A DNA stretch of 53,845 nt from Bacteroidota bacterium (GTDB taxonomy: Bacteria; Bacteroidota; Bacteroidia; Bacteroidales; UBA7960), in assembly GCA_018335675.1 (NCBI GenBank), contig JAGXRQ010000097.1, positions 1-53,845 of the forward strand, in the 5' to 3' direction. Shown here piece by piece: positions 1 through 34,970 of the stretch. A program made the position numbers and the translations under genes. The first letter of the stretch is position 1. Each line of letters begins with the position of its first letter. The notes beneath the pieces are model-generated. The model saw only the letters and a list, made by a program, of their open reading frames with translations, ran no database searches and was not told the DNA's origin.

Positions 1-221
1 CGCTCGTTCTCTTGCTCCAGTAGTCGAACCTGGGGATCTATCTTTTTATGCTGCGGTTTTAGCCCATCTACGCCGCTGTTTAAGTAGCGTTGCTTCCACT
101 TGGAAAGAAGCGAGGGTGCTATGTTATACTTCCTGCTTACCTCAACGGTGCCTTCGCGTTGCACTTCCTGAATAATCGATAATCGCTCTTCAGGTGTAAA
201 TTTTCTGTGTGATCTTTTCAT
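1..221 (-). CDS. IS3-family transposase OrfA (N-terminal part)
   Basis: This frame starts at ATG 221 and stays open for about 73 codons to the window edge. The protein begins MKRSHRKFTPEERLSII and continues with a helix-turn-helix (VSRKYNIAPSLLSKWKQRY) and then a Glu-rich start of a leucine zipper (VRLLEQENE). This is the layout of OrfA in IS3-family elements, which binds the terminal repeats and is normally joined to the DDE catalytic OrfB by a programmed frameshift. OrfB lies outside the window. The family call is firm; whether the element is intact cannot be judged. Confidence 0.85.
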   Translation of the reverse strand, partial: MKRSHRKFTPEERLSIIQEVQREGTVEVSRKYNIAPSLLSKWKQRYLNSGVDGLKPQHKKIDPQVRLLEQENE

Positions 222-289
222 GATTTCCTAAATTTACTGTTACAAAATTAATTTTAATTTTGTGTCCAGCTATTTAGGGGGTTAAGACA
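1..289 (-). mobile_element. IS3-family element, end fragment
   Basis: Read on the minus strand, the element begins TGTCTTAACCCCC at 289 and runs off the left edge of the window. The TG start (CA on the plus strand at 288-289) is the IS3-family terminal dinucleotide. About 70 bp inside lies the start of a transposase OrfA. The boundary at 289/290 is inferred because the neighbouring kinase frame loses its natural sequence exactly there. The other end, the second transposase frame and any target duplication lie outside the window. Confidence 0.8.
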
Positions 290-2012
290 ATATTACTGGA
301 AGCCTTCTGTTAATTATTATTTTTGCATTCTTCTTACTAATTGTTATAGCTAAAAGATCTAGCACATCTTTTATTATTCTTCCAAGCGGGAAGTTATGAG
401 TTTTGCTAACAATTTGTCCGGCTGTTGAGATTTCCAGTAAATCGTCAAGCATGTTGCTAAGTTTATTAGATGCATTTATTATTCTCTGAAGATCAATTTT
501 TACATTATCATAGTTGTTGTTTTTGATGTCTTCTAGTAAATATTTTGCAAACCCGTTGATTGTAATCAGTGGACTTTTTAAGTCGTGGGAAACTGTGTAA
601 GTATATTTTTCAAGCTCTTCATTTTTTTGTTCAAGTTTTTTTTGTTGATCCTTTTGCTCTGTTACATCTCTTACTATCACAAGTAAATCATTCTTGATGT
701 CTGGAATAACTCTTGCTTCAAACCATTTTTCTACTCCCTTAACAATAAGCGGATAATTAAATATTTGAAGTGTATTGGTTCTTTTCGCATCATGAAGTTT
801 TTCCATTATAATAGCAGTTAAATCAGCCGGTAAAACATCTTGAACTTTTTTGCCAATAAACTGCTCAATTGGGATGTAATATTTTTCAGCATGTAAGGTA
901 GAGCAATCAATAAAAACGGATTCTTTGTTTAACCTGAAAAACATATCAGGCAACGCATTAACTATGGTTTTGTTTCTTTCTTCACTTTCTCGAAGAAGTT
1001 GTTCCGACTTTATTCGCTTAAACGAGTTTGATATTACTTCAGCTAATATTTTTAAGAGAACCACATCTTCATCTGACCAAACTTTCTCTTCAATAACAGC
1101 ATCAAACCCTAGGAAACCTATTAATTTATTAGAAATTACAAGGGGAATTATTAATGCAGATTTAATTTCTTGAGATTCTAAAATTTCTTTTTCATTACTT
1201 GCTGAAATTGGTAATCGTGCAACTGATTCAATATGAATAGGATAATGTTTGTATAGTTTCTTCATCAGACATGGGAATGTATTTATTGGCTCGTTTTGCA
1301 AATTCTGCATTTGAGCACTTATCCCTTTTCTACACCACTCATGTGTGTTAGTAATATGTTGGTCATCGTCAGAAATAATAAATACATAGCTTCTATCAGC
1401 ATCAGCATGAAGTCCAATTTCTTTTAAAGCAATATTAATCTCCTTATCTATATTGGCAATATTAACATTGATGAATCGTGAAGAAATCGCAGACAGAATT
1501 TTTTCTCCTTCAAGCCTTTTGTGAAGCTCGAACTCTGCTTTTTTTAATGCTGTGACGTCAGTAATCGTTCCTATATATCCAACAATTTTTTTATTGCGAT
1601 ATGTTAAAGGAAGAGCTTTACCTATTACCCAAGATACAGAACTGTCGCTATGAAGAAATCTGTACTCAGCCTCAGATATTTTTTTCGACTTCGCATTCTT
1701 TTCCCAATTAATTTTAATTTTTTCTCTGTCGTCAGGATGCACAGCCTTTAGCCATCCATTGCCCATAGCTTCTTCTTCACTTAATCCTGAAATAATACAC
1801 CAATGAGGATTTACATAATTTGTAAAGCCTTCTGCATCTGTTCTGAAAATACCTACAGGTGCAATTTCTGCTAAAAGCTTAAATCTTAATTCACTTTCCT
1901 TTAGTGCTTCTGCTAAATTTTCAAGCTTTGATAATGCTGATTCAAGATTTTTTACATAGCTTTCTAAATCTATGCTTTTCTTTACAATATTATCATTTTT
2001 TATTTTCTGCAT
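282..2012 (-). pseudogene. PAS-GAF-PAS sensor histidine kinase, truncated by an IS insertion
   Basis: Two-component sensor kinase that has lost its catalytic domain. Visible in order: a short coiled coil (about 10-45), a PAS/PAC domain (about 40-155), a GAF domain (about 165-335), a second PAS (about 345-455), a coiled-coil linker, and a HisKA dimerisation domain with the phospho-acceptor His476 in VSHDLKSPL. The frame ends about 100 residues after that histidine at NRRLPVIL. Intact kinases continue there with the HATPase_c domain (N, G1 and G2 boxes). The last two codons and the stop at 282-284 belong to the IS end. No transmembrane segment is seen, so it was probably a cytosolic sensor. It cannot autophosphorylate alone; any residual sensing role is speculation. 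Confidence 0.88.
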
Positions 2013-2323: not shown

Positions 2324-5260
2324 ATGAGAAGAAGTCTAATCTTTTTATTACTGATTGTTATCTCGGGAAGCATTTTTGCTCAGAAGATAAGAGTTAGTGG
2401 GGTAGTTACATCAATGATGGAAGATAATATCAATCTTCCAGGTGTAACGGTTCTTGTAAAAAATTCTACAGTTGGTACCATTACTGACATAGATGGAAAA
2501 TACACCATCGAGACAAGTGCTAATGATACGTTGGTTTTCTCTTATGTTGGAATGGCAACTGAGGTAATTCCTATTGAAGGAAAAAGTTTAATTAACGTAT
2601 CTATGGTTATGGATATTGCCAGACTTGGTGAGGTAATTGTTGTTGGTTATGGTACGGAATCAAGCAAATTAATTACCGGTTCTTTAGGTGTGGTTGGTGA
2701 AAAACAAATCAAAGACTTGCCATTAAGAACACTTGACGGGGTATTGCAGGGTCGCTCAGCTGGTGTGCAAATAACTGCAAGTTCAGGTACTCCAGGGGCA
2801 GCTAATTCGATTAGGATTAGAGGAAACAGCTCTATCTCTGCCGGAAATGACCCATTAATAGTTGTTGACGGAATCCCAATCACTACGGGTAATTTAGGAC
2901 AGGTTGGGTTTTCAGGACAAACAATAGATGCGTTATCAGACATTAACCCAAATGATATTGAATCTATTACTGTTTTGAAAGATGCTTCTACAGCAGCAAT
3001 TTATGGTGCCAGAGCAACAAATGGAGTTATCCTTATCACAACAAAAAGAGGCTCAGCTCAAAAAACTAATATTAATTTCAATGCAAGCTACGGTATTCAA
3101 AGTATTGAGAAAAAACTAGAAATGCTTAATGCTGAGCAATGGTACGAGCTTAAAGGGACTTCACCTGCTGACCCTGATAATATTATAGATACTGATTGGT
3201 TGAGTGAAGTGCTAAAAACCGCTCCAATGGCTAATTATGAGCTTTCATTTAACGGTGGCGATAACGCAACAAAGTTTTTTATTTCAGGAAATTATTTTTT
3301 ACAAGAAGGTGTTTTAATAGGAACTTCTTATGAAAGACTTAATGGTAGAGTAAATCTTGATCATAAAGTGAATAAAAGATTTAACGTTGGCGCTAGTCTT
3401 GGAGTTAGTTATGCACTGAATAATAGGGTAGAGGGCGACCAATCGCTTAATGCACCTCTTGCAAATGCAATTGCAAATCCGGCTATTTTCCCGGTATATA
3501 ATGAAGATGGATCGTATAATGAAGATGCTCCATTTGCTAATCCCGTGGCAATTGGAAAAGAAGCATTAAATGAAGCACATTCTTATAGAACGATAGGCAA
3601 CCTTTATGGAGATTATAAAATTCTTGAAAAGCTGACATTTCAAACAAAATGGGGATTCGATTATCTAAGTCTGAGGGAGCATAGTTATGACCCTGCAACT
3701 ACTCGTCAGGGTGCCAGATCAAATGGAATTGGAATATCTGCCCAAAACAATGTTACAAATATTGTCTCAAATAATACATTGCGTTATGCGGATGTTTTTG
3801 CTAATGTTCATAACGCAGAAATTCTTGTTGGATATTCTTTTGAAAAATATCAGAGAAGAAATCAATTAATTCGCGGTGTTGACTTCCCCAATGAAAACTT
3901 CCAATATCTTAGTGAAGCCGGCACTATTACAAATGCATATTCAAGAGGTGTTAACCGCGGAATGAATTCATATTTTGGTCAAGTTAAATACAACTACGAT
4001 TACAAATATATTCTTTCAGCATCTGCAAGATACGACGGCTCATCCAGGTTCGGAGAAAACAATCGTTATGGTTTATTCCCTGCTGCTTCTCTCGCCTGGC
4101 GTGTATCGGAAGAAAATTTCTTTAAAAACCTATCAACTCCAATAAATGAATTCAAGCTTAGAGGTGGTTATGGAGTTACAGGTAATGATGGAATTCCGGA
4201 TTTTGCATATTTGTCGCTCTATGGAGGCGGTTCTAATTATCTTGGTGAAGCTGGTATTTATCCTCTTGCGTTATCAAACCCTGATCTTAAATGGGAAACA
4301 ACATATCAGTATAATGTTGGTGCTGATATTGGGCTGTATAACGACAGAGTTGAAATAAATTTCGAGTATTATAAAAATCATACAAAAGACCTTCTTTTTA
4401 GCAGACCGGTTTCTATGACTTCCGGATACTACAGTATTGTCTCAAATATTGGAGAACTTGAAAACAGAGGTATAGAAATTACTCTAAATACCGTAAATGT
4501 TAAAAAAGAAAATTTCACTTGGACATCAAATCTGAATTATTCTAGAAACAGAAATAAAGTGCTGTCGCTTTATAATGATCAACCACTCGACAATATTGGA
4601 AGAGGTAGTAATTCTGTTAGGGTAGGAGAACCACTGGGCGTTTTTTATGGATATAGAAGTCTAGGTGTTGACCCTTCAACAGGTGATATAGTTTTTGATG
4701 ATATAAATGGAGATGGAATAATTAACGCTGATGACAGGACTAAAATAGGAGATCCTAATCCTGATTTTATTGGTGGTTTTACAAATAATTTCTCATATAA
4801 GAATTTTGATCTTAGCATATTCCTTCAAGGTTCATATGGAAATGACATTTTTAATGGAACAAGGATTTATGTAGAATCAATGAAAGGTGCGGATAACCAA
4901 ACAACGGCTGTACTTGATCGCTGGCGTGAACCGGGAGATATTACAAGTGTGCCTAGAGCTACAGAGTTAGACCCTAATAATAACAATAGAATCTCATCAC
5001 GTTTTATTGAAGATGGATCATATCTCAGAGTGAAAAATGTTGTTTTATCATATAATATTGATAAAAAATATCTTACAAGAGCAGGTATTCGTAGTGCTAG
5101 AGTATATGTAACAGGTCAAAATCTCCTGACATTTACAAATTATAGTGGAATGGACCCCGAAGTAAACTATGCCGGTCCGGCTAATGTTGTTATGGGGACT
5201 GATTTCTTTACTCATCCTCAAGTACGTACTATTTCTTTTGGAATTAATCTTGGACTTTAA
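2324..5260 (+). CDS. SusC/RagA-family TonB-linked outer membrane transporter
   Basis: Outer-membrane beta-barrel that imports oligomers, paired with the SusD-like lipoprotein that follows 12 bp downstream. The signal peptide covers residues 1-20 (cleavage after FAQ). A carboxypeptidase-regulatory-like beta-sandwich spans about 23-98. The EVIVVGYG motif is at 103-110 and the plug domain runs to about 235, with the usual IRIRGNSSI and PLIVVDGIPI signatures. The barrel extends to the C-terminus. At 978 residues the length is normal. It opens a same-strand run SusC, SusD, PKD lipoprotein, cyanophycinase, so its substrate is probably a peptide polymer or its fragments rather than a glycan. That is inferred from context only, since SusC sequence does not reveal substrate. 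Confidence 0.95.
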   Translation: MRRSLIFLLLIVISGSIFAQKIRVSGVVTSMMEDNINLPGVTVLVKNSTVGTITDIDGKYTIETSANDTLVFSYVGMATEVIPIEGKSLINVSMVMDIARLGEVIVVGYGTESSKLITGSLGVVGEKQIKDLPLRTLDGVLQGRSAGVQITASSGTPGAANSIRIRGNSSISAGNDPLIVVDGIPITTGNLGQVGFSGQTIDALSDINPNDIESITVLKDASTAAIYGARATNGVILITTKRGSAQKTNINFNASYGIQSIEKKLEMLNAEQWYELKGTSPADPDNIIDTDWLSEVLKTAPMANYELSFNGGDNATKFFISGNYFLQEGVLIGTSYERLNGRVNLDHKVNKRFNVGASLGVSYALNNRVEGDQSLNAPLANAIANPAIFPVYNEDGSYNEDAPFANPVAIGKEALNEAHSYRTIGNLYGDYKILEKLTFQTKWGFDYLSLREHSYDPATTRQGARSNGIGISAQNNVTNIVSNNTLRYADVFANVHNAEILVGYSFEKYQRRNQLIRGVDFPNENFQYLSEAGTITNAYSRGVNRGMNSYFGQVKYNYDYKYILSASARYDGSSRFGENNRYGLFPAASLAWRVSEENFFKNLSTPINEFKLRGGYGVTGNDGIPDFAYLSLYGGGSNYLGEAGIYPLALSNPDLKWETTYQYNVGADIGLYNDRVEINFEYYKNHTKDLLFSRPVSMTSGYYSIVSNIGELENRGIEITLNTVNVKKENFTWTSNLNYSRNRNKVLSLYNDQPLDNIGRGSNSVRVGEPLGVFYGYRSLGVDPSTGDIVFDDINGDGIINADDRTKIGDPNPDFIGGFTNNFSYKNFDLSIFLQGSYGNDIFNGTRIYVESMKGADNQTTAVLDRWREPGDITSVPRATELDPNNNNRISSRFIEDGSYLRVKNVVLSYNIDKKYLTRAGIRSARVYVTGQNLLTFTNYSGMDPEVNYAGPANVVMGTDFFTHPQVRTISFGINLGL

Positions 5261-5272
5261 AAACTAACAGTC

Positions 5273-6628
5273 ATGAAAAATAAATTATATCTTTCAATAA
5301 TCAGTTTATTCTTGTTCTTTTCTTGCGATGTGCTAGATGTAGAACCTTTGCATAGTATTTCTGCTGATGAAGCAATTACCAGTGCAAATGATATTAAGAG
5401 GGCAGTAAATGGCTGCTATGACGCATTTCAATCTGCCGATTATTACGGTAGAAATTATCTTGTTGCAGGAGATCTTACTGCCGATTTGCTTACGTGGACC
5501 GGCACAACAGCAGGATATAACCAGATTAATAACAATAGTATTCTTGCTGATAATATTATTGTTGAAGGAATCTGGAGTAGTTTGTATACTACCTTAAATA
5601 GGATAAATAATACTCTACATAGGATTCCTGAAGTTACAAACCTTACTGAAGATGAAGTAGCTGAAGTAGAAAAGCTAAAAGGGGAATTGTATTTCCTGAG
5701 AGCATTAAGCCACTTTAATTTAGTAAAGTTATTTGGCCCCGTCCCAATCAGAGTTGCACCGGCTACTGCTTCAGATGAAGATCTCAATGTTCCAAGAAGA
5801 TCTGTTAATGATGTATATGAGCAAATATTTACTGACTTGTCAGCTGCGGAAGAACTAATTACAGAAGAAATTATTTTAGGAAGAGCTTCAAAAGCGGCAG
5901 TTTTAGCATTGAAAGCTCGAGCCAGCCTTTATTTCTATTTTCATTCTAACCAAACTTCTAGATTAGTAGATGCTGTAAATGCTGCTACTGCTGTAATTGA
6001 CGATTTTGGACTTGAAATGGAGAATGACTTTGCAACTCTATTTAGCGGAACTCCAAATACAGAATCGATTTTTGAAATTGAGTTTAATGAACAAGATAGA
6101 AATAGGTTAGCTGAATATTTTTTCCCTAGCTCCTTTAGTGGAAGAAGAGAATTTGCTCCAACTCAGCAATTATTTAACTCTTACGATGCCATTGATGTGA
6201 GGCGCGATATTTCTATCGGAAAGGCAGGAGCCGACCTTTATGCCCAAAAATATTCAGATATTGAAAAAGGAACTGATAATGTTTATGTATTTAGGCTTGC
6301 TGAAATGTACCTAATTAGGGCTGAAGCAAATGCTTTACTTCAAATTGAGGCAAGTTTAGTGCAAAGCGACGTAAATAAAATTAGAGAGAGGGCCGAATTG
6401 CTGCCTGTTACATCAACAAATTTTCAGGTGCTTTTGCTTGAAATCGAAACCCAAAGAATGAAAGAATTTGCATTTGAAGGACACAGATGGTTTGATCTGG
6501 TAAGAACGGGCAGAGCTATTACTGTTCTTGAAAATGTCACAAATATTAACCAGACATTATATCCTATTCCATTGAATGAAATTCTGACAAATACGAACGA
6601 AAATATGTATCAAAACGATGGTTATTAA
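5273..6628 (+). CDS. SusD/RagB-family surface lipoprotein
   Basis: Substrate-binding lid of the SusCD import complex. A lipoprotein signal peptide ends at Cys18 (LFLFFSC). The N-terminal SusD-like region has the TPR-type helices that bind the substrate (LKGELYFLRALSHFNLVKLF). The C-terminal RagB/SusD domain carries the family signature MKEFAFEGHRWFDLVRTGRA and ends with the typical YPIPLNEI segment. At 451 residues it is at the short end for the family. It is separated from susC by 12 bp and is certainly co-transcribed with it. The ligand is unknown; the cyanophycinase two genes downstream suggests Asp-Arg polymer or dipeptides. Confidence 0.94.
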   Translation: MKNKLYLSIISLFLFFSCDVLDVEPLHSISADEAITSANDIKRAVNGCYDAFQSADYYGRNYLVAGDLTADLLTWTGTTAGYNQINNNSILADNIIVEGIWSSLYTTLNRINNTLHRIPEVTNLTEDEVAEVEKLKGELYFLRALSHFNLVKLFGPVPIRVAPATASDEDLNVPRRSVNDVYEQIFTDLSAAEELITEEIILGRASKAAVLALKARASLYFYFHSNQTSRLVDAVNAATAVIDDFGLEMENDFATLFSGTPNTESIFEIEFNEQDRNRLAEYFFPSSFSGRREFAPTQQLFNSYDAIDVRRDISIGKAGADLYAQKYSDIEKGTDNVYVFRLAEMYLIRAEANALLQIEASLVQSDVNKIRERAELLPVTSTNFQVLLLEIETQRMKEFAFEGHRWFDLVRTGRAITVLENVTNINQTLYPIPLNEILTNTNENMYQNDGY

Positions 6629-6656
6629 TATTTATAAACCTCAAAAATTTCTAAAG

Positions 6657-7532
6657 ATGAAAAAAAATAGCATTATTTATAAACTGTCAGCCTTAGTTCT
6701 ATCGCTAATAGTTGTTTTAATTGCCTGTGAGGAAGATATATTGGTTCCACCGGCAAGTACGCAAGCTGACTTCACTTTTACTGTGGAAGAAATTATTAAT
6801 GATGAAACAGATGAAGTTTCTTATGAAGTTAGATTCGAAAATAAATCAGTAAATGCAAGCTCTTACAATTGGTCTTTTGGCAATGGAGAAACATCTACTG
6901 AAGAAAATCCGGTCGTTATTTATGATGCCTCGGGTAAATACGTAATTACGCTTACAGTTACAGGCCCAAGCGACCTTTATTACAATAATCTTGAAAAGGT
7001 TGAAGCAATTTTATTGGGTAAAAATTCATTGTATTTTGAAGATTTTACATCCGAAGATGAGGAATTGCCAACTGATATTACAACATGGGATGTAGATGGT
7101 GACGGATTTGATTGGTATTGGGGAATAAGATCAGGAGATGGACAGGCTAGAAGCCAGTCTTACGATTCTGATGGCGATGCTGCATTAAATCCTGATAATT
7201 GGCTAATTATGCCTGCTATTGACTTAACTGAGTTTTCTACCGGGGCATTGGTTATTTTTAGATACACTGCTGGAGTGTCTGCAAATACTCCTCGCTACAG
7301 AAAAGAAAATTATGGAGTTATGATATCTGGTGGTGAAATGATTCAGGAAGATTTTGAATTGATATTCGAAGAAACTTTTACTGAAGAGACACCACAATGG
7401 ACCCCAATTGAAAGAGAAATTGATATATCAAATTACGTTGGTCAAGTTGTTTATCTTGCAATCAGGCATTTTAATGTGTCGGATATGGATAGGATGTTTA
7501 TTTCAGAACTTGAAGTTTATGTAATTGAATAG
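6657..7532 (+). CDS. PKD and choice-of-anchor J domain lipoprotein
   Basis: Probable outer-membrane surface lipoprotein of the SusCD cluster. The start is placed at ATG 6657, which gives a clean lipoprotein signal (Cys24 in VVLIACEED) and a 28-bp gap after susD. An upstream in-frame start would add 13 non-signal residues. A PKD-like beta-sandwich (about 37-104, with NWSFGNG) is followed by a cleaved-adhesin or choice-of-anchor J domain (about 123-291) in canonical order: FEDF, then DVDGDGFDWYWG, NPDNWLIMPAIDL, and finally DISNYVGQVVYLAIRHFN. It takes the position of the surface glycan-binding protein in sugar loci, so a polymer-binding role is plausible but unproven. Confidence 0.82.
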   Translation: MKKNSIIYKLSALVLSLIVVLIACEEDILVPPASTQADFTFTVEEIINDETDEVSYEVRFENKSVNASSYNWSFGNGETSTEENPVVIYDASGKYVITLTVTGPSDLYYNNLEKVEAILLGKNSLYFEDFTSEDEELPTDITTWDVDGDGFDWYWGIRSGDGQARSQSYDSDGDAALNPDNWLIMPAIDLTEFSTGALVIFRYTAGVSANTPRYRKENYGVMISGGEMIQEDFELIFEETFTEETPQWTPIEREIDISNYVGQVVYLAIRHFNVSDMDRMFISELEVYVIE

Positions 7533-7539
7533 GACTGTT

Positions 7540-8397
7540 ATGATTAGGAAATTTTTAGTTTATATACTAATAGCAGCTTTTGCTTTCTCAAGTGAGAGCT
7601 GCTATAATGATATAGATACGTTATCTTCAAGTGGCAAGTTGTTTATTATTGGTGGAGGAAATAGGTCAGATTCATTAATGTTGAAAATGATTAATGAAGC
7701 AGATATTGGAGATCGTGGATACGTTTTTATACTTCCAATGTCGAGCGAAATGTCTGACACTACTTTACTCAAACTAGTGAATGAATTTAAAGAATTAGGT
7801 ATTGAGAAAGTAACAGGTTATAATTTTCTTCCAAATGAAACTCCTCCGCAGATCTGGGTTGATTCTTTGCGAAATGCTTCGCTGATTTATATTTCTGGAG
7901 GAGATCAGAATAGATTTATGCAAATTGTTGATGGGAATGCAATTGAAGAAGCAATTAATTATGCCTTTAATAATGGTGCTATGATTGCTGGTACTAGTGC
8001 CGGCGCAGCAGTTATGAGCGAAAAAATGATTACCGGTAATGAACTTAAGTCGCCGGAATATCGTGCAACATTCAGAACTATTGAGAATGAAAATATTGAA
8101 CTTGCCAAAGGATTAGGTTTTATTACAACAGCAATAATAGATCAGCATTTTGTATGGAGAAGTAGATACAACAGACTAATTAGTGCAATAATTGAACATC
8201 CGGAATTAATCGGAATAGGTATTGATGAGGCTACAGCGATACTTGTGAGTGGTAATAAGGCAAAAGTTATTGGTGAATCTCAGGTTGTTGTATTCAGAAA
8301 TCCAGATAAATCTCTTATTGAAGTTAATGGGAAGCTAGGGGCAAGGAATTTATTAATTGATATTTACCTTCCGGGTGAAGAGTTTGAGGTGAGGTAG
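7540..8397 (+). CDS. Exported cyanophycinase (peptidase S51)
   Basis: Serine exopeptidase of family S51, predicted to cut cyanophycin (poly-Asp with Arg side chains) into beta-Asp-Arg dipeptides. The start is ATG 7540, just after the preceding stop; an in-frame TTG at 7525 overlaps the upstream gene. Nucleophile Ser153 lies in GTSAGAAVM. The block DQHFVWRSRYNRL with His203, followed by GIGIDEATAILV, is the cyanophycinase signature and separates this protein from PepE-type dipeptidases. The 285-residue length fits. The N-terminus is a signal peptide with Cys21, but the residues before it (SSES) are a weak lipobox, so a soluble periplasmic form is possible. It is the last gene of the SusCD run and sits before yfcC. 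Confidence 0.87.
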   Translation: MIRKFLVYILIAAFAFSSESCYNDIDTLSSSGKLFIIGGGNRSDSLMLKMINEADIGDRGYVFILPMSSEMSDTTLLKLVNEFKELGIEKVTGYNFLPNETPPQIWVDSLRNASLIYISGGDQNRFMQIVDGNAIEEAINYAFNNGAMIAGTSAGAAVMSEKMITGNELKSPEYRATFRTIENENIELAKGLGFITTAIIDQHFVWRSRYNRLISAIIEHPELIGIGIDEATAILVSGNKAKVIGESQVVVFRNPDKSLIEVNGKLGARNLLIDIYLPGEEFEVR

Positions 8398-8400
8398 TTA

Positions 8401-8449
8401 TTGGGTATTGGGTATTAGGTATTGGGTATTAGGTATTGGGTATTAGGTT
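8401..8449. repeat. Tandem heptamer array, TTGGGTA/TTAGGTA
   Basis: Seven exact 7-bp units (TTGGGTA alternating with TTAGGTA, last unit TTAGGTT) begin three bases after the cyanophycinase stop and end about 30 bp before yfcC. The period is strict and the only variable position is the G/A in the third base, apart from the last base of the final unit. Confidence 0.95.
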
Positions 8450-8480
8450 ATTAATAACGTTATAAAAAAGGAGTAAAGAA

Positions 8481-10100
8481 ATGTTGAAAAAAGTGCCGCA
8501 TACGTATGTAATTGTTTTTGGGATTATTGTTATTGCTGCTATTTTAACTTGGGTTATCCCTCCTGGTAAGTATGTTAAAGAAACCAGACTTGTTGAAGGC
8601 GTTGAAAGTGAAATGATGGTTTTTTATTACGAACAGAATCTTCCTGAAGAGCATGCTCCGGAAAAACCTTCTCAATTTCAAACATGGCAGGTGTTCTCTG
8701 CACTGTTTAAAGGCTTTGTAAAACAAAGCAACATCATTATTTTCATTCTAATTATTGGAGGTGCTTTCTGGATAATGAACCATAGCAAAGCTATTGATGT
8801 TGCAATTTTAGCATTTCTTCGATTCACTAAAAAACTTGAGGGATTTGGATTGATGCGAAGAATGGGTGTGAATAATATTGTTATTGTGCTGATAATGGTG
8901 ATGTTCAGCCTTTTTGGGGCCATTTTTGGGATGAGTGAGGAAACTATTGCTTTCGCAATCATTCTAATACCTCTTTCAATATCAATGGGTTATGACAGTA
9001 TTGTGGGTGTTTGTCTGGTCTATGTTGCTGCCCACATTGGGTTTGCCGGCGCTATCTTAAATCCATTTACAATTGGAATAGCTCAAGGTCTTGCTGATAT
9101 CCCTCTGTTCTCAGGAATCGAATATAGGCTTGTAACTTTTATAGTGCTTACTACCGTGGGAATTATATTTGTAATCAGGTATGCCAATAAAATCAAGAAA
9201 AACCCAAAAGCTTCTCCCGTTTTTGAAGAAGACTCTTACTGGAGGGAAAAGGGTGTTTCTGAATCAAACCATATTGAGTATTATACTCCAAAGATTTCAT
9301 GGTTTGTATTTGGATTAACTTTAATAGTAATGATAATTTTCTCTATTTTTTATCCTAAAACAACCCTTACAATAGGTAATTCTAGCTTTACTGCTATGAT
9401 TATTCCTGTTTGCACAGCAATTTATTGGGTGCTTGGTGTGTTTGCACTCAGAAAATCAGTTCATTATTTCATTTTGTTGTTATTGGCATATACCATTGTT
9501 TTTCTAATTGTTGGAGTTATGGGATATGGTTGGTATGTGATGGAAATTGCAACATTATTTCTTGGGATGGGTATTGGTGCAGGTTTGGCTATAAATAAAT
9601 CTGCTGATGAAATTGCAAAACTATTTCTTGAGGGAGTTAAAGATATTCTATCTGCTGCTGTAATTGTTGGATTGGCCGGTGGTATTATTGTAGTGTTGAC
9701 TGATGGTGGGATAATTGATTCAATTCTTTATGGTTTGTCCAAAGCAATGGGTAATTTTGGAGATGTTGCTTCAATTGGAGTAATGTATGTTATACAAACT
9801 GTAATTAATGTTGTTATACCTTCAGGTTCTGCAAAAGCTGCAATTACAATGCCTATTATGGCTCCTTTTAGTGATTTGATTGGAATATCAAGGCAAGCTA
9901 CTGTTGTGGCATTCCAGTTTGGAGACGGTTTTACGAATATGATAACCCCAACATCAGGAATTCTTATCGCTGTGCTTGGTATTGCAAGAATCCCATACAA
10001 CAAATGGGTTAAGTGGGTTTGGCCAATGATACTAACCTTAATTATTCTAGGATTCCTGCTGCTTATCCCAACAGTTACAATGAATCTAAATGGGTTTTAA
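8481..10100 (+). CDS. yfcC: YfcC-family amino acid transporter or antiporter
   Basis: Polytopic inner-membrane carrier of the DcuC/YfcC group, a family annotated as basic amino acid or C4-dicarboxylate antiporters. The N-terminus MLKKVPHTYVIVFGIIVI and the WVIPPGKY loop are typical. About 12 hydrophobic segments are visible, and the C-terminal half has the family motif with VIPSGSAKAAITMPIMAP. At 539 residues the length is normal. The start is preceded by a strong Shine-Dalgarno AAGGAG, which is unusual beside its neighbours. It follows the cyanophycinase with an 83-bp gap holding a heptamer array and ends at a strong terminator. Export or exchange of arginine or ornithine released from cyanophycin would fit; substrate is inferred. 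Confidence 0.88.
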   Translation: MLKKVPHTYVIVFGIIVIAAILTWVIPPGKYVKETRLVEGVESEMMVFYYEQNLPEEHAPEKPSQFQTWQVFSALFKGFVKQSNIIIFILIIGGAFWIMNHSKAIDVAILAFLRFTKKLEGFGLMRRMGVNNIVIVLIMVMFSLFGAIFGMSEETIAFAIILIPLSISMGYDSIVGVCLVYVAAHIGFAGAILNPFTIGIAQGLADIPLFSGIEYRLVTFIVLTTVGIIFVIRYANKIKKNPKASPVFEEDSYWREKGVSESNHIEYYTPKISWFVFGLTLIVMIIFSIFYPKTTLTIGNSSFTAMIIPVCTAIYWVLGVFALRKSVHYFILLLLAYTIVFLIVGVMGYGWYVMEIATLFLGMGIGAGLAINKSADEIAKLFLEGVKDILSAAVIVGLAGGIIVVLTDGGIIDSILYGLSKAMGNFGDVASIGVMYVIQTVINVVIPSGSAKAAITMPIMAPFSDLIGISRQATVVAFQFGDGFTNMITPTSGILIAVLGIARIPYNKWVKWVWPMILTLIILGFLLLIPTVTMNLNGF

Positions 10101-10102
10101 TT

Positions 10103-10133
10103 AAAAACCGCCTTGATAAAGGCGGTTTTTTTT
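10103..10133 (+). terminator. Intrinsic terminator after yfcC
   Basis: Perfect stem AAAAACCGCC / GGCGGTTTTT with an 8-nt loop and a run of eight T. It begins two bases after the yfcC stop. The flanking A run lets it act in both directions, so it could also serve the converging gene. Confidence 0.95.
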
Positions 10134-10157
10134 CTAATAATTATATGATTCTCTTTT

Positions 10158-10241
10158 CAATACTCAATACTCATTACTCAATACTCAATACTCAATACTC
10201 AATACTCATTACTCAATACTCATTACTCATTACTCAATACT
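10158..10241. repeat. Tandem heptamer array, CAATACT/CATTACT
   Basis: Twelve exact 7-bp units (CAATACT with four CATTACT variants) fill the space between the yfcC terminator and the stop codon of the converging gene. Read on the minus strand the unit is AGTATTG, which differs by one base from GGTATTG, a rotation of the TTGGGTA unit at 8401-8449. The two arrays therefore flank yfcC in opposite orientation. Confidence 0.95.
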
Positions 10242-10243
10242 AA

Positions 10244-13200
10244 CTACCTCATAATAATTATCTTCTCATCAACTTTTCTCATTAGTTTGCGTGTTTTAGA
10301 ATCAGAAATACTAATGCTGATGAAGTACATTCCGCTTCTAAAACTGCTGTCTGCAGTAAACTCAAGAATATGTTCGCCTTGTCCAAAAAGAGTGCTTTCA
10401 GTTTGTCTTATAATTCCTCCCGATCTGGTTATAAGCATAAATTCCACATAAGCATCTTCAGGTAAAACGAGTCTAACAGAGTATTTTCCGGCAGTAGGGT
10501 TGGGGTAAACATTTACATCAAATTTACTGAGTATTTCTGTAACCGGTGTTGTGTCAAATACTGAACCTGATTTAATAGGAACAAGTGTATGAATTTCACT
10601 CGAAGCTTCCGTGAGTCCCCATTTTATCGTTGCAATTGCAACATCAAATATTTTAAACAGATCAATTTTCCCGGCAGGGATAGCCGTGTTATTCATGCTG
10701 TAAATAACTCCCATACCTGTGTCATTATTGAATGAGATATGATGGTCAGTGTTAAGCATCAAGGTAATATTTGCATTGCAAACCTGAGCACTATTTAATT
10801 GAAATTGCATTGCAATAAGGCTGCCATCGCTTTCAAACGTAACCAAGCCATCTTTATTCAGAAAAATAGAAGCTTCATTTTCGCTGGCTGTGGCTGATGA
10901 ATCTTTTGCACCACCCAGAATTAAGTTAATTAATGCAGTTAAATCGGCAATATTAACATTAGTATCCCCATTAACATCTGCATTTGCTATATTGAATCCA
11001 ACAGGTGTGCTTCCATTCAGATGGCTAACCATCCAAACAACATCAAGTACATTAATAAAACCGTCATTGTTCACGTCACCCGGGTTATTTGTTGGGCCAA
11101 CAAAGGTTCCTGTGATGGCGATATCATCTACGCTCCAGTTTTTTTGGCGACTTGGATTTCCATGGCTATTATAAGCAACTCTCCACCTGAATTTAACGTT
11201 GCTTGCTCCAGTTAGTGCGGGTATTATACCTGATGAATAAGTTGCACCTGCTCCCATTGTTGCTGTCCATGTTGCAATCTGAGTCCATGCTCCATTGTTA
11301 ATGCTATACTCAAGAAATGCAGAGCCTACACCTGCAGCAGCCAAATAAAATCTGTGAAGCATTGATATTGAAATATCTTTGTATGAGGTAAAGTCGAAAC
11401 ATGCAGAAACCATTTGTCCGGCTTGCGCTGCAGTTCCGGAGTAGTCAGCATACGCATATGGTGCTTTGCCTGCTATCAGTGCGTTTGTAGATGTGCCCAC
11501 AGCCCATGTGGGTGTTCCGCTTTGAGTCCATCTTGCAGGCAATGCACTTAAGCCTGTGAAATCTTGAGCATAATTTGGATTAAAGCATGCTTCAGCAAAA
11601 TTTGCCACTAAAGTTACATTCTCTGCAGGCATAGTATAATTATATGTTGCACTTGTGCTAATCGGAACTCCACCTTTGGTCCAATTAACAAATGCATATC
11701 CATTATTAGCAACAGCTGAAATACTTACAACGTCGTTTGCTTCAAAGTATGATCCGCTTGGATTATTACTTACAGTTCCAAATCCTGAAGGATTTGCTTG
11801 AAGTGTAAGCTTATAACCTGATGGAGCAACTCCAAGTTGCAGACCAGGTGTAATTACCCAGTTATTTGGGAAAAGCGCAACTGTCTGAAAAGAAGCACTT
11901 AGCAAATATCCATCCCCTGAAAACGATGCATGATACCAGTTTCTGCCATCTCCATCTGCATCAATCAACGTCCAACCTGCAGGAATTCCTCCTGAAGCAT
12001 CAAAATTTTCATTAAAAATATTCACCTGAGTTGCTCCATCAACCCAGTATAGTCGTACATCGTTTATAGCAATCCTATCCTTATCAGTTGAATTATGGTG
12101 TCTGAAAGCTATATATACATTATCTCCAAGATAACTTGAAATATCAACTGTTCTTAGCCTAAAGTCCCAATTAGTATGTGTTGTTAGCAAGGTTTCATTG
12201 TGCAAGAGAATAAAATCACCGATTGCAGTTCCGGTATTAGAAATATACACACTATATTGCTCAGTTCTATATGATGTTGTATTTGCAGTGGGACAAACCG
12301 TCCATGATAAATAAATAGGTCCGTCTATTGGATCTGTTGGAATAAGAGTATAATTTGCTGTTATTGTTTTATTAGAAGCAGGCATGGTGTATTCAAAATT
12401 GGCTTGAGTGCTGATAACAGTGGCTCCATCAGTCCAGTTTACGAAATTATATCCGAATACCGGATTTGCTTTAAGCATGACCTTTGTCCCATTTGTATAG
12501 CTTCCACCACCTGTTGGATTTCCACCAGCTGTAGGTGTTGCCTGAATTGTAAGGTTGTAATATGTAAAGCCGAAGTCAGGAGGTGTACAACTAGTGTTGT
12601 AGCTCATTGTTCCATTATTGGCAGACCAGCATTCCCAATAACCGCCACTTCCCATTTGCCATGTATTTAAGTCGAAAGTGTTTATTCCGTTGGGTGTGCC
12701 AGGGACTTTATAAACTTTAACAGCCTGACCACCTCTATTCCAAGTAAGTGGAGTTCCGCTTGTGCATGTTTCAGGCCCTGCTGCACCAGGGTGCATTGTT
12801 AAAAAATATGCATAGTCTTCGAATGCGGGATAACTACCGAAAATTCTGGCTATCCCATTGCTTTGCACTGCAACGGCAGTAACTTCATTTGCTCCAATGC
12901 CTCTTGCTTGCATTCCCCAATCTTTATTCATACGGGCAAGAAACACAAAATGTCGTCCTCTTCTGTCAGGGTTATTGTAATGTGTGTCAGTTACAGTATT
13001 TGCAAGAATAGGAATGTTAAGGTAGTCGTTTGCCAGAGTAACAGTATTTCTGTATGGATTGCTTAATGCATCGGCAGAAGTGACAGTCCCGTTTACTGCT
13101 GTATATACAACCCCACCCAATACTGCCATACCTGCGCTGGTTCCTCCAACTGCACCTCCTTTTTCGTTTATTAGATATAGTAAAGCATCATGGAGTTTTG

Positions 13201-13600
13201 TGCCTTTCCAAATTGTATAATAATTTGCTTGGTTTCCTCCTACAATAAATACAGCTTCTGCATTTCTGACAGCTGTTTCTACAGCTGCGCTATTTGCCCT
13301 GGCTGTAGTAGTTATGCTCTCAATTGTTGTAATGGAGTTCATTAACCCAGGGAAAGCTGCGTAATCATCATTGTATGCTGTTCCGGTATCATATCTTAGG
13401 AAAACAACATCACCAACATTTGTTAAACTATAAAACCACTGAAGACCTTCCATATTATCGCCTCCTCCACCCATAAGCAGATATCCTTCTTGATGGTTTG
13501 TGTTTACATCGTTGGGGTTACCAACTCGGGTTAGTGTTTGTGATTTCACAGCCAGTGTAAAAAATATTGCAGCTACTGTTATTGTTATGATACGTTTCAT
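10244..13600 (-). CDS. T9SS-secreted multidomain cyanophycinase-family protein
   Basis: Large exported protein, 1118 residues. In order: signal peptide (1-20); peptidase S51 domain (about 25-275) with Ser155 in GGTSAGM and His207 in TDTHYNNPDRRGR, then ANEVTAVAV; divergent InlB-type repeat (about 348-418); two halves of a choice-of-anchor J domain in swapped order (428-519 and 526-592); second InlB-type repeat (about 596-668); a second beta-sandwich of the anchor J or MAM type (about 672-832); dockerin type I repeats (GDVNNDGFIN at 841, ADVNGDTNVN at 874); a cohesin-like segment (about 905-1010); T9SS type A sorting domain (about 1028-1118, VNVYPNPTAGKYSV). It should be secreted and cell-surface anchored. 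The likely role is extracellular attack on cyanophycin or a similar polymer; catalytic activity is inferred. Confidence 0.88.
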   Translation of the reverse strand: MKRIITITVAAIFFTLAVKSQTLTRVGNPNDVNTNHQEGYLLMGGGGDNMEGLQWFYSLTNVGDVVFLRYDTGTAYNDDYAAFPGLMNSITTIESITTTARANSAAVETAVRNAEAVFIVGGNQANYYTIWKGTKLHDALLYLINEKGGAVGGTSAGMAVLGGVVYTAVNGTVTSADALSNPYRNTVTLANDYLNIPILANTVTDTHYNNPDRRGRHFVFLARMNKDWGMQARGIGANEVTAVAVQSNGIARIFGSYPAFEDYAYFLTMHPGAAGPETCTSGTPLTWNRGGQAVKVYKVPGTPNGINTFDLNTWQMGSGGYWECWSANNGTMSYNTSCTPPDFGFTYYNLTIQATPTAGGNPTGGGSYTNGTKVMLKANPVFGYNFVNWTDGATVISTQANFEYTMPASNKTITANYTLIPTDPIDGPIYLSWTVCPTANTTSYRTEQYSVYISNTGTAIGDFILLHNETLLTTHTNWDFRLRTVDISSYLGDNVYIAFRHHNSTDKDRIAINDVRLYWVDGATQVNIFNENFDASGGIPAGWTLIDADGDGRNWYHASFSGDGYLLSASFQTVALFPNNWVITPGLQLGVAPSGYKLTLQANPSGFGTVSNNPSGSYFEANDVVSISAVANNGYAFVNWTKGGVPISTSATYNYTMPAENVTLVANFAEACFNPNYAQDFTGLSALPARWTQSGTPTWAVGTSTNALIAGKAPYAYADYSGTAAQAGQMVSACFDFTSYKDISISMLHRFYLAAAGVGSAFLEYSINNGAWTQIATWTATMGAGATYSSGIIPALTGASNVKFRWRVAYNSHGNPSRQKNWSVDDIAITGTFVGPTNNPGDVNNDGFINVLDVVWMVSHLNGSTPVGFNIANADVNGDTNVNIADLTALINLILGGAKDSSATASENEASIFLNKDGLVTFESDGSLIAMQFQLNSAQVCNANITLMLNTDHHISFNNDTGMGVIYSMNNTAIPAGKIDLFKIFDVAIATIKWGLTEASSEIHTLVPIKSGSVFDTTPVTEILSKFDVNVYPNPTAGKYSVRLVLPEDAYVEFMLITRSGGIIRQTESTLFGQGEHILEFTADSSFRSGMYFISISISDSKTRKLMRKVDEKIIIMR

Positions 13601-32253: not shown

Positions 32254-34938
32254 TCATTCATGGATTGAATTAAGAACAACGGGAAAATGAGTTTGATAGT
32301 TTTGTCTGGCTAATTCCCAAACAGATTCTTTATTAATGATGGATACAATATTTTCTGCTACAATGTGGGTTTTAATCTCATTCACAAGCATACTGCTGTT
32401 GAAAACTTTTAAACTCTCACTATTCTGAGTAGTTAAAATATCGGTAAGACCTATTATATGATTTTCTTCGGAATTTATTGAGTTATATGTTTTAGATATT
32501 GTTTTATTTTGATTTTCTACAACATAAATTAAATCAGCAAACTCGGCGATATTAGCTGCATATAACTTAAATTCTTCCTCCGTTTTAAATTCAGAAACAA
32601 AAATAAAAGCGGCAACTCCTTTCCCTTTGATTGAACAAAGTTTTTTAATCTCATCAAAAGCCTTTTTGTTTTTTGGATTGTCATAAAGTACTTCAAGCTC
32701 CTGATGTTTTAAAAAATTCATCCTACCAGGCAAATTGTGGGGCAGGGGAGAGAATGATTTCAGATAATGTCCAATTTTCTCAGGTGCTACTCCCAACGCT
32801 GTTAAAGCGCAACATGCAGCTAGAATTGAGTCTAAAAAGAGATCAGTAGTATTGTTGAATGTGAGAGGAACTTCTTTTAAATCAGCAATCATTGCTCGGG
32901 AGCTTCTGTTATGAATGAAAATCTTTTCTTCTTTTACGAAAGCACCCATACCTCCCTTGGTCATATGATTAGTAAGCTCTTTGTTTGCAGGGTTTTTGCT
33001 GAATAGAGCCGGCTTACTATAAAGTCTGTTCATAGCTTCCAATATAAATGGATTATCAGCATTCAAGACAGAAAAACCGGATTCATATACCTCTTCTGTT
33101 ACAACAGATTTTGCGTATGCCAGATCCTCCAACAGCCAAATATCATCCTGATGAAGGTGATTATCAAATAGATTAAGAAATATTCCAACATCAGCAAACT
33201 GGTATCCCAAGCCATCTTTTAAAATTCCTTCAACCGATGTTTCCAGAATAGCGCAATCAATAGAAGTATCACCAAGTAATGCCGGCACATCTTCGGGATA
33301 AGTCATGTTCCCAGAGATAACTTTTCGTCCTGCTGCAAAAAGCCCGTCAGAGCATGCAAGCCCGGTTTGAAATCCTTCTTTTTCCAGAGCAAAATTGATT
33401 AGATATGCACATACACTTTTACCAGCAGAGCCTGTAATTGAAATTAATGGCACATGCGACCTTGACTCTTTAGGAAACAACATATCCAGCATTGGGATTG
33501 CAGGATTTATCGGATTTCCAGCTGCAGGATTTACGTGCATCCTGAAATCTGGTCCTGCATTAACTTCAAGTATTACTCCTCCGGTTTTTGTAATAGGAAT
33601 TTCAATGCTTTCAGCAACTATAGTTACTCCGGCAACATTCAAACCACTAACGTTGGCAGCTCTTTCGGCAAGAAAACGATTTTCCGGATGAACTTTTTCT
33701 GTTACATCCTCAGTAAAAGCACCAAAAGCCGGATTACAAGTAGACTCAAGTCTTATTTCTAAACCTTGCTCAATTATAGAATCCAGTTTCAAGCCTTTTA
33801 AAGAAAGATTCTTTTCAGTCTGTTCATCGGTAATAACATAAGAAAGTTTACCCTTATCACCCGGTTCTCTTCCCTGCATTGAATTTATATTGTTAACCAG
33901 TTCTAACACGGTTTTATTTCCATTGCCAATTATTACAGGAGGAGTAAGTTTTGTTGCGGCAATCATTTTGCCATTAATTATAAGTAATCTGTATGTGTTG
34001 CCAGGAATATGTCTTTGAATAAGGACAGGCTTTTCCTCCTTAATGCAATGTGAAAATGCTTGTAAAAATGAAGATTCATCATTAATGTCTAGAAATACAT
34101 TTTCACCTCTGCTGCCTTGGGCCGGCTTTATTACTGCTTTATCGTTCAGATTTACAAAGAACTCTTTTGCTTCTTCATAATTTATGGTTTTCAATGTTTC
34201 CGGTATAGGCAGACCTGCATCTCTTAGAGTAAGAGTAGTAAGGTATTTGTTGGTTGCATTTTCAACTCCAATGAAATTAGTATCAGATGTAATTGTTGCT
34301 CTTATTCTTTTTTGATATTTTCCGGTACCTAACTGAATGAGATTATGCTGATCTAACCTAATTATGGGGATGTTTCTTTTTAGAGCTTCATCCACAATAG
34401 TCTGTGTACTTGGACCCAGCAGTCTTTCTTCACGAATATTTATCAACTCATTTACAATAGGGTTAACATCAAATTCCTGTTTCATGAGCAAAGCATTTAT
34501 GAGGTTTACGGCAGCTTTTGCAGCATATATACCAGCTTTGTCATCAATAAAACGAAATATTATATTATAAACACCTTGAGTGAGTGTACTTCTAGTTTTT
34601 CCATACCCCGCTTGCATTCCGGCTAAAGATTGTAATTCTATGGCAACATGCTCAATAACATGACCCATAAGAGTTCCTTGTCTTACTCTGAAAAAGAAAC
34701 CTCCGGGCTTTCCTTCAGAGCAATGATGTTCGTACAAAGTTGGAAGAGTTGATTCAAGCCTATCATAGAATCCATCAATTTCATTGGAAAAAACTTCGTC
34801 GTACTCCCCAAGACTAAGTCTGGTTAGAATTACAGGTCCTGCACTGAAATAATTTGCGCCCCTAAGAACTTTTATAAGTTCTACTTTTAATGGACCTTCG
34901 TTTATCTTATAGTCTTTAGCAAGATCAGTTTTTTCCAT
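32254..34938 (-). CDS. cphA: Cyanophycin synthetase
   Basis: CphA polymerises Asp and Arg into cyanophycin in two ATP-dependent steps. From ATG 34938 the protein has 894 residues, the size of full-length CphA1. An N-terminal region (1-165) is followed by an ATP-grasp domain (about 200-490) with LGPSTQTIV, GTGKYQKRIRAT and the loop KPAQGSRGEN, then a Mur-ligase-like domain (about 495-894) with the P-loop GSAGKS (503-508). The Mur part is unusual: the family TGTNGKT is replaced by GSAGKS, and DYAHNP, normally well conserved, reads YDNPKN (752-757). The first ligase looks intact; the second may be altered. PepE is encoded just upstream on the same strand. A start at 34965 is less likely. Confidence 0.92.
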   Translation of the reverse strand: MEKTDLAKDYKINEGPLKVELIKVLRGANYFSAGPVILTRLSLGEYDEVFSNEIDGFYDRLESTLPTLYEHHCSEGKPGGFFFRVRQGTLMGHVIEHVAIELQSLAGMQAGYGKTRSTLTQGVYNIIFRFIDDKAGIYAAKAAVNLINALLMKQEFDVNPIVNELINIREERLLGPSTQTIVDEALKRNIPIIRLDQHNLIQLGTGKYQKRIRATITSDTNFIGVENATNKYLTTLTLRDAGLPIPETLKTINYEEAKEFFVNLNDKAVIKPAQGSRGENVFLDINDESSFLQAFSHCIKEEKPVLIQRHIPGNTYRLLIINGKMIAATKLTPPVIIGNGNKTVLELVNNINSMQGREPGDKGKLSYVITDEQTEKNLSLKGLKLDSIIEQGLEIRLESTCNPAFGAFTEDVTEKVHPENRFLAERAANVSGLNVAGVTIVAESIEIPITKTGGVILEVNAGPDFRMHVNPAAGNPINPAIPMLDMLFPKESRSHVPLISITGSAGKSVCAYLINFALEKEGFQTGLACSDGLFAAGRKVISGNMTYPEDVPALLGDTSIDCAILETSVEGILKDGLGYQFADVGIFLNLFDNHLHQDDIWLLEDLAYAKSVVTEEVYESGFSVLNADNPFILEAMNRLYSKPALFSKNPANKELTNHMTKGGMGAFVKEEKIFIHNRSSRAMIADLKEVPLTFNNTTDLFLDSILAACCALTALGVAPEKIGHYLKSFSPLPHNLPGRMNFLKHQELEVLYDNPKNKKAFDEIKKLCSIKGKGVAAFIFVSEFKTEEEFKLYAANIAEFADLIYVVENQNKTISKTYNSINSEENHIIGLTDILTTQNSESLKVFNSSMLVNEIKTHIVAENIVSIINKESVWELARQNYQTHFPVVLNSIHE

Positions 34939-34962
34939 AATGTAAATCTTCAACTGTGTATG

Positions 34963-34970
34963 CAAATATA
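34963..34970 (-). promoter_or_regulatory. Possible -7 box for cphA
   Basis: TATATTTG on the minus strand, 25 bp before the cphA start, fits TAnnTTTG and would give a short leader. No -33 box is seen at 18-19 bp. Confidence 0.4.

What the first reader, a model, noticed from the sequence alone, without database searches (positions are those of the whole stretch)
2324..13600. Candidate cyanophycin-utilisation locus built like a SusCD locus
A SusC/SusD pair, a PKD/anchor-J lipoprotein, an exported cyanophycinase with the full S51 signature (GTSAGA, DQHF, GIGIDEATA) and a YfcC-type carrier run together. They face a 1118-residue T9SS-tailed protein that also carries a cyanophycinase domain. This looks like a polysaccharide-locus architecture turned to a polypeptide polymer: surface cutting, SusCD capture, periplasmic cutting, amino acid exchange. 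Substrate is inferred, not shown.
Basis: partly seen in the sequence, partly recalled or inferred. Interest (0 to 1): 0.85.

Follow-up and report, generated by a model that had tools for sequence, protein, structure and literature searches.

The report
Gene cluster for eating cyanophycin
This gene cluster very probably lets a bacterium of the Bacteroides group catch and digest cyanophycin, the nitrogen store of cyanobacteria, using an uptake machine normally used for sugars; loci of this kind were described before, so it is a good new example rather than a new discovery.

Summary
A five-gene operon (SusC, SusD, PKD/anchor-J lipoprotein, exported S51 lipoprotein, DcuC/YfcC-family carrier; 2324-10100) ends in a terminator and faces a convergent 1118-residue exported S51 protein. 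The lipoprotein passes the curated cyanophycinase model and keeps the CphB active-site positions; the large protein fails that model and reads DTH for DQH. SusC and SusD lie beside 46 of 56 orthologous S51 loci and 0 of 24 paralogous control loci. IadA or IaaA, dipeptidases that finish cyanophycin breakdown, share the cluster in 31 of 84 related loci; this host has iadA on another contig. Cyanophycin is thus the best-supported substrate, though inferred. The idea is not new: a Bacteroidetes 'cyanophycin utilization locus' is credited to Ben Hania et al. 2017 by a citing paper (the 2017 paper was not held). New as far as I saw: spread over several orders, a fixed residue difference between the two S51 types, and an exported M20 peptidase in 14 of 84 loci where no IadA or IaaA is in view, a candidate dipeptidase.

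The parts
2324..5260 (+). SusC/RagA TonB-dependent outer-membrane transporter, 978 aa, with CarboxypepD_reg_2 N-terminal domain
   Evidence: TIGR04056 890 bits (cut-off 368), PF13715, PF07715, PF00593
5273..6628 (+). SusD-like surface lipoprotein, 451 aa, 12 bases after SusC
   Evidence: PF14322 and PF07980 over cut-off; gap
6657..7532 (+). PKD + choice-of-anchor J lipoprotein (ORF opens at 6618), Cys followed by EED: probable surface binding protein
   Evidence: NF038128 53.7 bits (cut-off 30), PF18911 39.7 (cut-off 27); acidic tail
7540..8397 (+). Exported S51 cyanophycinase, 285 aa, lipobox Cys21, Ser153, Gln202-His203, Arg207/209/212, Glu230
   Evidence: TIGR02069 162.7 bits (cut-off 126.6); invariant columns of A1; model pLDDT 86 closest to cyanophycinase structures
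8481..10100 (+). DcuC/YfcC-family inner-membrane carrier, 539 aa
   Evidence: PF03606 349.5 bits; NF008611 375 bits, below cut-off 500
10103..10130 (+). Terminator-like site between the operon and the convergent gene (12-pair stem, T run)
   Evidence: consensus scan
10244..13600 (-). 1118-aa exported protein: N-terminal S51 domain, InlB-like repeats, Cleaved_Adhesin/anchor-J, dockerin-like pair, borderline T9SS tail; convergent with the operon
   Evidence: Pfam and NCBIfam
12545..13600 (-). S51 domain of the 1118-aa protein (GTSAGM, DTHY, GANEVTA): diverged cyanophycinase fold
   Evidence: best PDB hits of the A3 profile are cyanophycinases; model pLDDT 90.8, nearest 7uqv, 7uqw, 3en0

Best explanation
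A scavenging locus for cyanophycin (poly-Asp with Arg on each side chain). Proposed working: the PKD/anchor-J and SusD lipoproteins hold polymer on the cell surface; the large exported S51 protein trims it there; SusC takes pieces through the outer membrane; the S51 lipoprotein, facing the periplasm, releases beta-Asp-Arg dipeptides; the DcuC/YfcC carrier, the only inner-membrane transporter of the operon, brings dipeptide (or freed amino acids) inward; the IadA encoded elsewhere in the genome (G000:C131) splits the dipeptide to Asp and Arg. Shown from sequence: gene content, order, conservation, active-site residues, export signals. Inferred: substrate, binding, direction of transport, each cleavage.
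For: S51 lipoprotein over the curated cyanophycinase cut-off; 86 of 86 distinct orthologues carry DQHF..R.R..R; predicted structure closest to cyanophycinases, including 7uqw, titled as bound to a cyanophycin dimer. SusC+SusD beside 46 of 56 orthologues, 0 of 24 paralogues. Known beta-aspartyl dipeptidases in 31 of 84 loci (IadA 20, IaaA 11) and an M20 candidate in 14 more, never two kinds in one locus. In the order, 42 genomes have both IadA and an S51 match, of 61 with S51 and 48 with IadA among 295. The host has one full-length IadA, 486.8 bits, cut-off 331, 71% identical to a locus-borne one. Lipoprotein tails: 3 or more acidic residues of 5 in 17 of 21 anchor-J proteins and in 0 of 49 S51 lipoproteins, in keeping with surface against periplasm. 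The large-type S51 gene follows the carrier on the same strand in L039, L081, L088, L089.
Against: No activity, binding or induction data. iadA is not in the window's locus. The nearest solved chain is titled 'pseudo-CphB', whose activity I could not read up. S51 members cut other Asp peptides too (PepE). 10 of 56 orthologous loci lack the SusCD pair within view, and 39 of 84 show no dipeptidase in view. Close homologues of the carrier are common in the order (152 of 295). The counted loci are related, not independent, and 80 of them were the best 80 of 300 matches.
Confidence: 0.82

Rival explanations
1. The locus takes up another aspartate-rich or isoaspartyl substrate (beta-linked poly-Asp, aged isoaspartyl peptides, or a cyanophycin-like polymer with other side chains), not cyanophycin itself.
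For: IadA and IaaA are reported to be promiscuous for beta-Asp dipeptides (PMC10206079 abstract). The nearest solved relative is titled 'pseudo-CphB'. The large S51 protein has DTH for DQH.
Against: The positions of the lipoprotein that align with CphB Gln101, Asp172, Gln173, Arg178, Arg180, Arg183 and Glu201 (numbering and roles recalled) are all kept; score over the curated cyanophycinase cut-off.
Confidence: 0.13
2. The locus mainly recovers the host's own or its kin's cyanophycin: the same window holds a full-length CphA-like synthetase, so the organism may be both maker and eater. This does not exclude the best explanation.
For: CphA-like 32254-34965, 779 bits to TIGR02068 (cut-off 850), with the Cx19HxxEH motif; an S51 without visible signal peptide at G000:C21 scoring 203.8 bits to TIGR02069.
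Against: Of 17 genomes searched only the host has a CphA-like match at E 1e-50 or better, yet by my count 9 of the other 16 have the orthologous S51 with SusC or SusD beside it; surface capture proteins suit outside polymer.
Confidence: 0.1
3. Chance neighbourhood: a common SusCD pair happens to lie beside S51 genes.
For: SusCD pairs are numerous in Bacteroidota (Dyadobacter passage in PMC11573002: 96 and 81 copies).
Against: 46 of 56 against 0 of 24 in controls, Fisher 8e-13 without correction for kinship; tight spacing of 12, 28, 7 and 83 bases.
Confidence: 0.01

Closest known systems
Cyanophycin utilization locus of Salinivirga cyanobacteriivorans L21-Spi-D4 (Ben Hania et al. 2017, Environ Microbiol 19:1134; not held, seen only through passages of PMC10206079 and PMC6243061)
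   Same: Cyanophycinase genes, one with a Por secretion domain, and a transporter. A same-order one-contig genome (G214, 4812386 bases; I think Salinivirga, not proven) has S51 (50% identical), SusC (53%), SusD (45%), a PKD lipoprotein, IadA and a T9SS-tailed S51 together; a MAG named Salinivirgaceae, L108, has S51-SusC-SusD
   Different: Here the order is SusC-SusD-PKD-S51-carrier, the carrier is in the operon (in G214 it lies elsewhere), iadA is on another contig, the exported S51 protein is longer and convergent
Cyanophycinase CphB (Synechocystis, 3en0, 7uqw) and pseudo-CphB (7uqv)
   Same: Fold and active-site positions of the lipoprotein
   Different: Exported lipoprotein; 25-30% identity in the structural alignments; the large protein has DTH for DQH
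SusCD polysaccharide utilization loci
   Same: SusC, SusD, surface lipoprotein, lipoprotein enzyme, inner-membrane carrier
   Different: Peptidase in place of glycoside hydrolases; no glycoside hydrolase or polysaccharide lyase model among the six genes
TonB receptor beside a cyanophycinase gene, Citromicrobium sp. JLT1363 (PMC3400609, passages)
   Same: Same proposal of cyanophycin as a TonB-transporter substrate, 2012
   Different: Not a Bacteroidetes; no SusD is mentioned in the passages seen

Membership tests
Cyanophycin utilization locus (as cited in PMC10206079) | Cyanophycinase gene(s) | tested here: met
   7540-8397 over TIGR02069 cut-off
Cyanophycin utilization locus (as cited in PMC10206079) | A transporter in the same locus | tested here: met
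   SusCD and DcuC-family carrier in one gene row
Cyanophycin utilization locus (as cited in PMC10206079) | iadA in the same locus | tested here: not met
   The genome's only match is at G000:C131:18596-19747. In relatives IadA is in view in 20 of 84 loci
Cyanophycin utilization locus (as cited in PMC10206079) | Growth on or breakdown of cyanophycin | not testable with these tools
   No experiment possible
Cyanophycinase (TIGR02069), 7540-8397 | Curated score and CphB active-site positions | tested here: met
   162.7 bits, cut-off 126.6; positions
Cyanophycinase (TIGR02069), 10244-13600 | Curated score | tested here: not met
   60.2 bits against 126.6; 37 of 37 distinct proteins of this type have D[ST]H
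T9SS cargo, 10244-13600 | C-terminal sorting domain over cut-off | tested here: inconclusive
   TIGR04183 22.9 against 23.0; PF18962 22.6 against 27; host has a PorW/SprE gene
SusCD pair | TIGR04056 and SusD Pfam models over cut-off, adjacent | tested here: met
YfcC basic amino acid antiporter (NF008611) | Curated score | tested here: not met
   375 bits against 500; DcuC family PF03606 is met

The most novel reading that the evidence does not exclude
In Bacteroidota this locus is a modular machine with exchangeable last steps. In Winogradskyella, Polaribacter, Gelidibacter and relatives (14 of 84 loci) an exported M20 metallopeptidase stands where others have IadA or IaaA; it would be a beta-Asp-Arg dipeptidase, a function that PMC10206079 calls undiscovered in Bacteroidota (said there of cphA1-bearing genomes). 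Where the dipeptidase is cytoplasmic the locus tends to add the DcuC/YfcC carrier, which would make that carrier a beta-Asp-Arg importer. The T9SS-type S51 enzymes, with a fixed Gln-to-Ser/Thr change beside the catalytic His (37 of 37), would be a second cyanophycinase class working on the cell surface with a different cut.
Probability: 0.35. Interest if true: 0.6.

Novelty: new member of a known kind. Interest (0 to 1): 0.42.

Why it matters
If right, use of cyanobacterial nitrogen reserves through SusCD systems occurs in several orders of Bacteroidota and is recognisable by a compact gene signature, which bears on who recycles nitrogen in mats, blooms and soda lakes. It also offers a named candidate for an open enzyme question: the beta-Asp-Arg dipeptidase of Bacteroidota without IadA.

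Tried and rejected
Considered and rejected: that the recurring ~378-aa gene before S51 in flavobacterial loci is the dipeptidase; the one scanned is a PKD lipoprotein. That the carrier marks the pathway genome-wide; close homologues (E 1e-120 or better) are in 152 of 295 genomes. That carrier presence follows the cellular place of the dipeptidase: 24 of 30 cytoplasmic-looking against 0 of 15 exported-looking (counted by me, Fisher p 1.6e-7), but on the S51 tree only 1 or 2 independent contrasts exist and the sign test gives p = 1; kept only as a hypothesis. Another M20 subfamily member (L050) lies with a carrier; its cellular place was not examined and it is in none of these counts. That M20 is the sole possible dipeptidase: 13 of 13 M20-locus genomes that could be searched also have an Asparaginase_2 gene somewhere, which weakens the need for it; 0 of those 13 has IadA over the cut-off, 1 has a partial match, and 0 of 13 has a close carrier homologue, 3 a weak one. 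In 14 of 14 M20 proteins His111, Asp113, Asp140, Glu174, Glu175 and His407 are invariant (that these are the zinc site is recalled), but the best solved relative is carboxypeptidase G2, and poly(aspartic acid) hydrolase 7ljh is a weak match at E 3.6e-4.

No RNA family at gathering score and no tRNA in the window. Sigma-70 promoter-like sites were fewer than in shuffles (37 against 48); Bacteroidetes-type promoters are not covered by that scan. Searches failed on my own wrong coordinates. Two papers were not held, among them Ben Hania 2017, so its gene order was not seen.
Full report
WHAT IS THERE. Six genes stand as described. SusC, SusD, a PKD/anchor-J lipoprotein, an S51 lipoprotein and a DcuC-family carrier follow each other on the + strand with gaps of 12, 28, 7 and 83 bases (the third gene counted from its likely start at 6657), and a 12-pair terminator-like stem begins 3 bases past the last stop codon. 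The 1118-residue gene runs towards them on the - strand. Curated models support SusC, SusD, the anchor-J lipoprotein and the cyanophycinase; the carrier belongs to Pfam DcuC but not to the YfcC equivalog; the large protein's S51 domain is far under the cyanophycinase cut-off and its T9SS tail sits just under threshold.

THE TWO S51 PROTEINS. The lipoprotein matches solved cyanophycinases best (7uqv E 2.2e-28, 3en0 1.5e-22), far better than dipeptidases E (5e-4 to 0.2). In the alignment of 13 relatives Cys21, Gln123, Ser153, Asp201-Gln202-His203-Phe204, Arg207, Arg209, Arg212 and Glu230 are invariant. Counting along the 3en0 alignment from a recalled Ser132, these fall on Gln101, Ser132, Asp172 to Phe175, Arg178, Arg180, Arg183 and Glu201 of Synechocystis CphB; the roles of those residues are recalled, not from a call. 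86 of 86 distinct orthologues keep DQHF..R.R..R, while 37 of 37 distinct proteins of the large type read Asp-Ser/Thr-His there. The AlphaFold model of the lipoprotein (pLDDT 86.0, 13 sequences) is closest to cyanophycinases (TM 0.71-0.79 by query length), with dipeptidases E lower (0.48-0.61); the large protein's S51 domain (pLDDT 90.8, 28 sequences) also ranks cyanophycinases first, TM 0.57-0.59 by query and 0.73-0.77 by target length. A profile of that domain finds cyanophycinases first as well (7uqv 7.5e-28). The nearest chain, 7uqv, is titled 'pseudo-CphB'; a library search for cyanophycin with its organism found no paper.

CONSERVATION. In 295 genomes of the order, 61 have an S51 match at E 1e-10 or better; 13 of them, host included, have one at 46% identity or more (list typed). 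A scan of named genomes gave 80 loci, the best of 300, from Bacteroidales, Flavobacteriia (Winogradskyella, Polaribacter, Gelidibacter, Christiangramia, Flavobacterium), Fulvivirga, Chryseolinea and Cyclobacteriaceae, Saprospiraceae and Sphingobacterium (names from the titles, some ranks recalled). In the remaining 56, SusC is present in 47, SusD in 46, both in 46, the large-type S51 in 28, the carrier in 24, IadA in 14, M20 in 13, IaaA in 8. Of 24 control loci around paralogous S51 genes, which I picked from the list, 0 have SusC plus SusD, 1 has SusC, 4 have IadA. Fisher 8e-13 ignores kinship; many loci are near-copies, the controls are all from the order while the orthologues are wider, and some control stretches are short (from 7.7 kb).

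THE DIPEPTIDASE. Cyanophycin breakdown needs a beta-aspartyl dipeptidase after cyanophycinase (PMC10206079, abstract and passages). In 84 loci with a usable S51 row, IadA is in view in 20, IaaA/Asparaginase_2 in 11, an M20 peptidase in 14, none in 39, and never two kinds in one locus. On the S51 tree (quick method) the three kinds need 5 changes where 2 is the least. The window's host has one IadA at C131, 486.8 bits, 71% identical to a locus-borne one, and an Asparaginase_2 gene at C19 whose N-terminus looks exported by eye. In the order 42 genomes have both IadA and an S51 match, 19 S51 only, 6 IadA only, 228 neither. 7 of 7 genomes searched with a window-like locus lacking iadA in view (L077, L078, L079, L080, L083, L086, L109) have IadA elsewhere.

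TOPOLOGY. Among distinct proteins with a lipobox-like Cys, acidic residues in the next five positions number 3 or more in 17 of 21 anchor-J lipoproteins, 33 of 43 of the related PKD lipoproteins, 7 of 58 SusD and 0 of 49 S51 lipoproteins. An acidic stretch there is the surface-export signal of Bacteroidetes lipoproteins (recalled). This favours surface binding and periplasmic cutting. 36 of 85 S51 orthologues show no lipobox by this simple test, so anchoring is not universal; SusD, known to be at the surface, seldom reaches 3, so the test is rough.

CARRIER. Loci whose dipeptidase looks cytoplasmic hold a carrier in 24 of 30 cases, those with an exported one in 0 of 15 (my count; Fisher). This suggests dipeptide import, but only 1 or 2 independent contrasts support it, and the carrier is common in genomes without the locus. 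I therefore do not assert its substrate.

PRIOR WORK. PMC10206079 (outline and passages) says that Ben Hania et al. [quoted passage not shown] PMC6243061 (passages) says the close S51 homologues of Salinivirga cyanobacteriivorans are of two kinds, one with a Por secretion system domain. I recall from the 2017 abstract that the transport complex was called homologous to polysaccharide utilization loci; the paper is not held. PMC3400609 (passages) proposed cyanophycin as a TonB-transporter substrate in 2012. PMC9262961 (passages) gives the Cx19HxxEH motif used on the CphA. PMC11573002, PMC12590107, PMC10100682 and PMC10687191 (passages) held no SusCD-cyanophycinase locus in the passages seen. 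Library searches with cyanophycin plus SusD, polysaccharide utilization loc, Salinivirga, dipeptid (from 2023) and M20 listed nothing whose title or abstract start reports the many-order cluster or the M20 link; the library holds open-licence papers alone.

VERDICT. A real, well-conserved and probably functional cyanophycin scavenging locus, of a kind already in print.

Noticed in passing
window 32254-34965 (-) and 35164-35877 (-): A full-length CphA-like synthetase (779 bits, cut-off 850) with the Cx19HxxEH primer-making motif lies next to a PepE dipeptidase gene (321 bits, cut-off 156), about 19 kb from the large S51 gene. Of 17 genomes searched only the host had a CphA-like match.
   Followed up: partly
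L068:12503-14410 (G000:C131) and L069:9539-11548 (G000:C95): Two short CphA-like proteins (635 and 669 aa; ATP-grasp in the one scanned) without the N-domain motif; the first lies 2.8 kb from the host's iadA.
   Followed up: partly
window 1-2012 (-): A PAS/GAF sensor kinase divergent from SusC seems to end after its dimerisation region, without an ATPase domain, just before a transposase-like fragment at the contig edge (domains named by eye, no family search).
   Followed up: partly
L053:9823-10686 and L054:9131-10432 (host contigs C21, C72): Two more host S51 genes: one without visible signal peptide scoring 203.8 bits as cyanophycinase, about 4 kb from a T9SS porW/sprE gene, and a 433-aa T9SS-tailed one 47% identical over 327 aa to the window's large S51 protein.
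   Followed up: partly
L087 (PWGU01000081.1): A contig labelled Halorubrum, an archaeon, carries this SusCD-S51 locus with an S51 that is identical, in the tree's columns, to that of the Bacteroidales locus L088: probably a mis-binned contig.
   Followed up: no
L141:12474-14800: Galbibacter mesophilus has two large-type S51 genes in tandem behind the carrier.
   Followed up: no
L038:589-1776 and L041:7595-8185: A FecR-like gene (37.8 bits, under its cut-off of 385) and an ECF sigma factor gene lie in two related loci; none of the window's six genes is such a regulator.
   Followed up: no
flavobacterial loci, e.g. L093:7471-9981: Two PKD lipoproteins in a row; 19 of 44 proteins of this type, duplicates included, have SPRG or DPRG in the last 25 residues; meaning unknown.
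   Followed up: no
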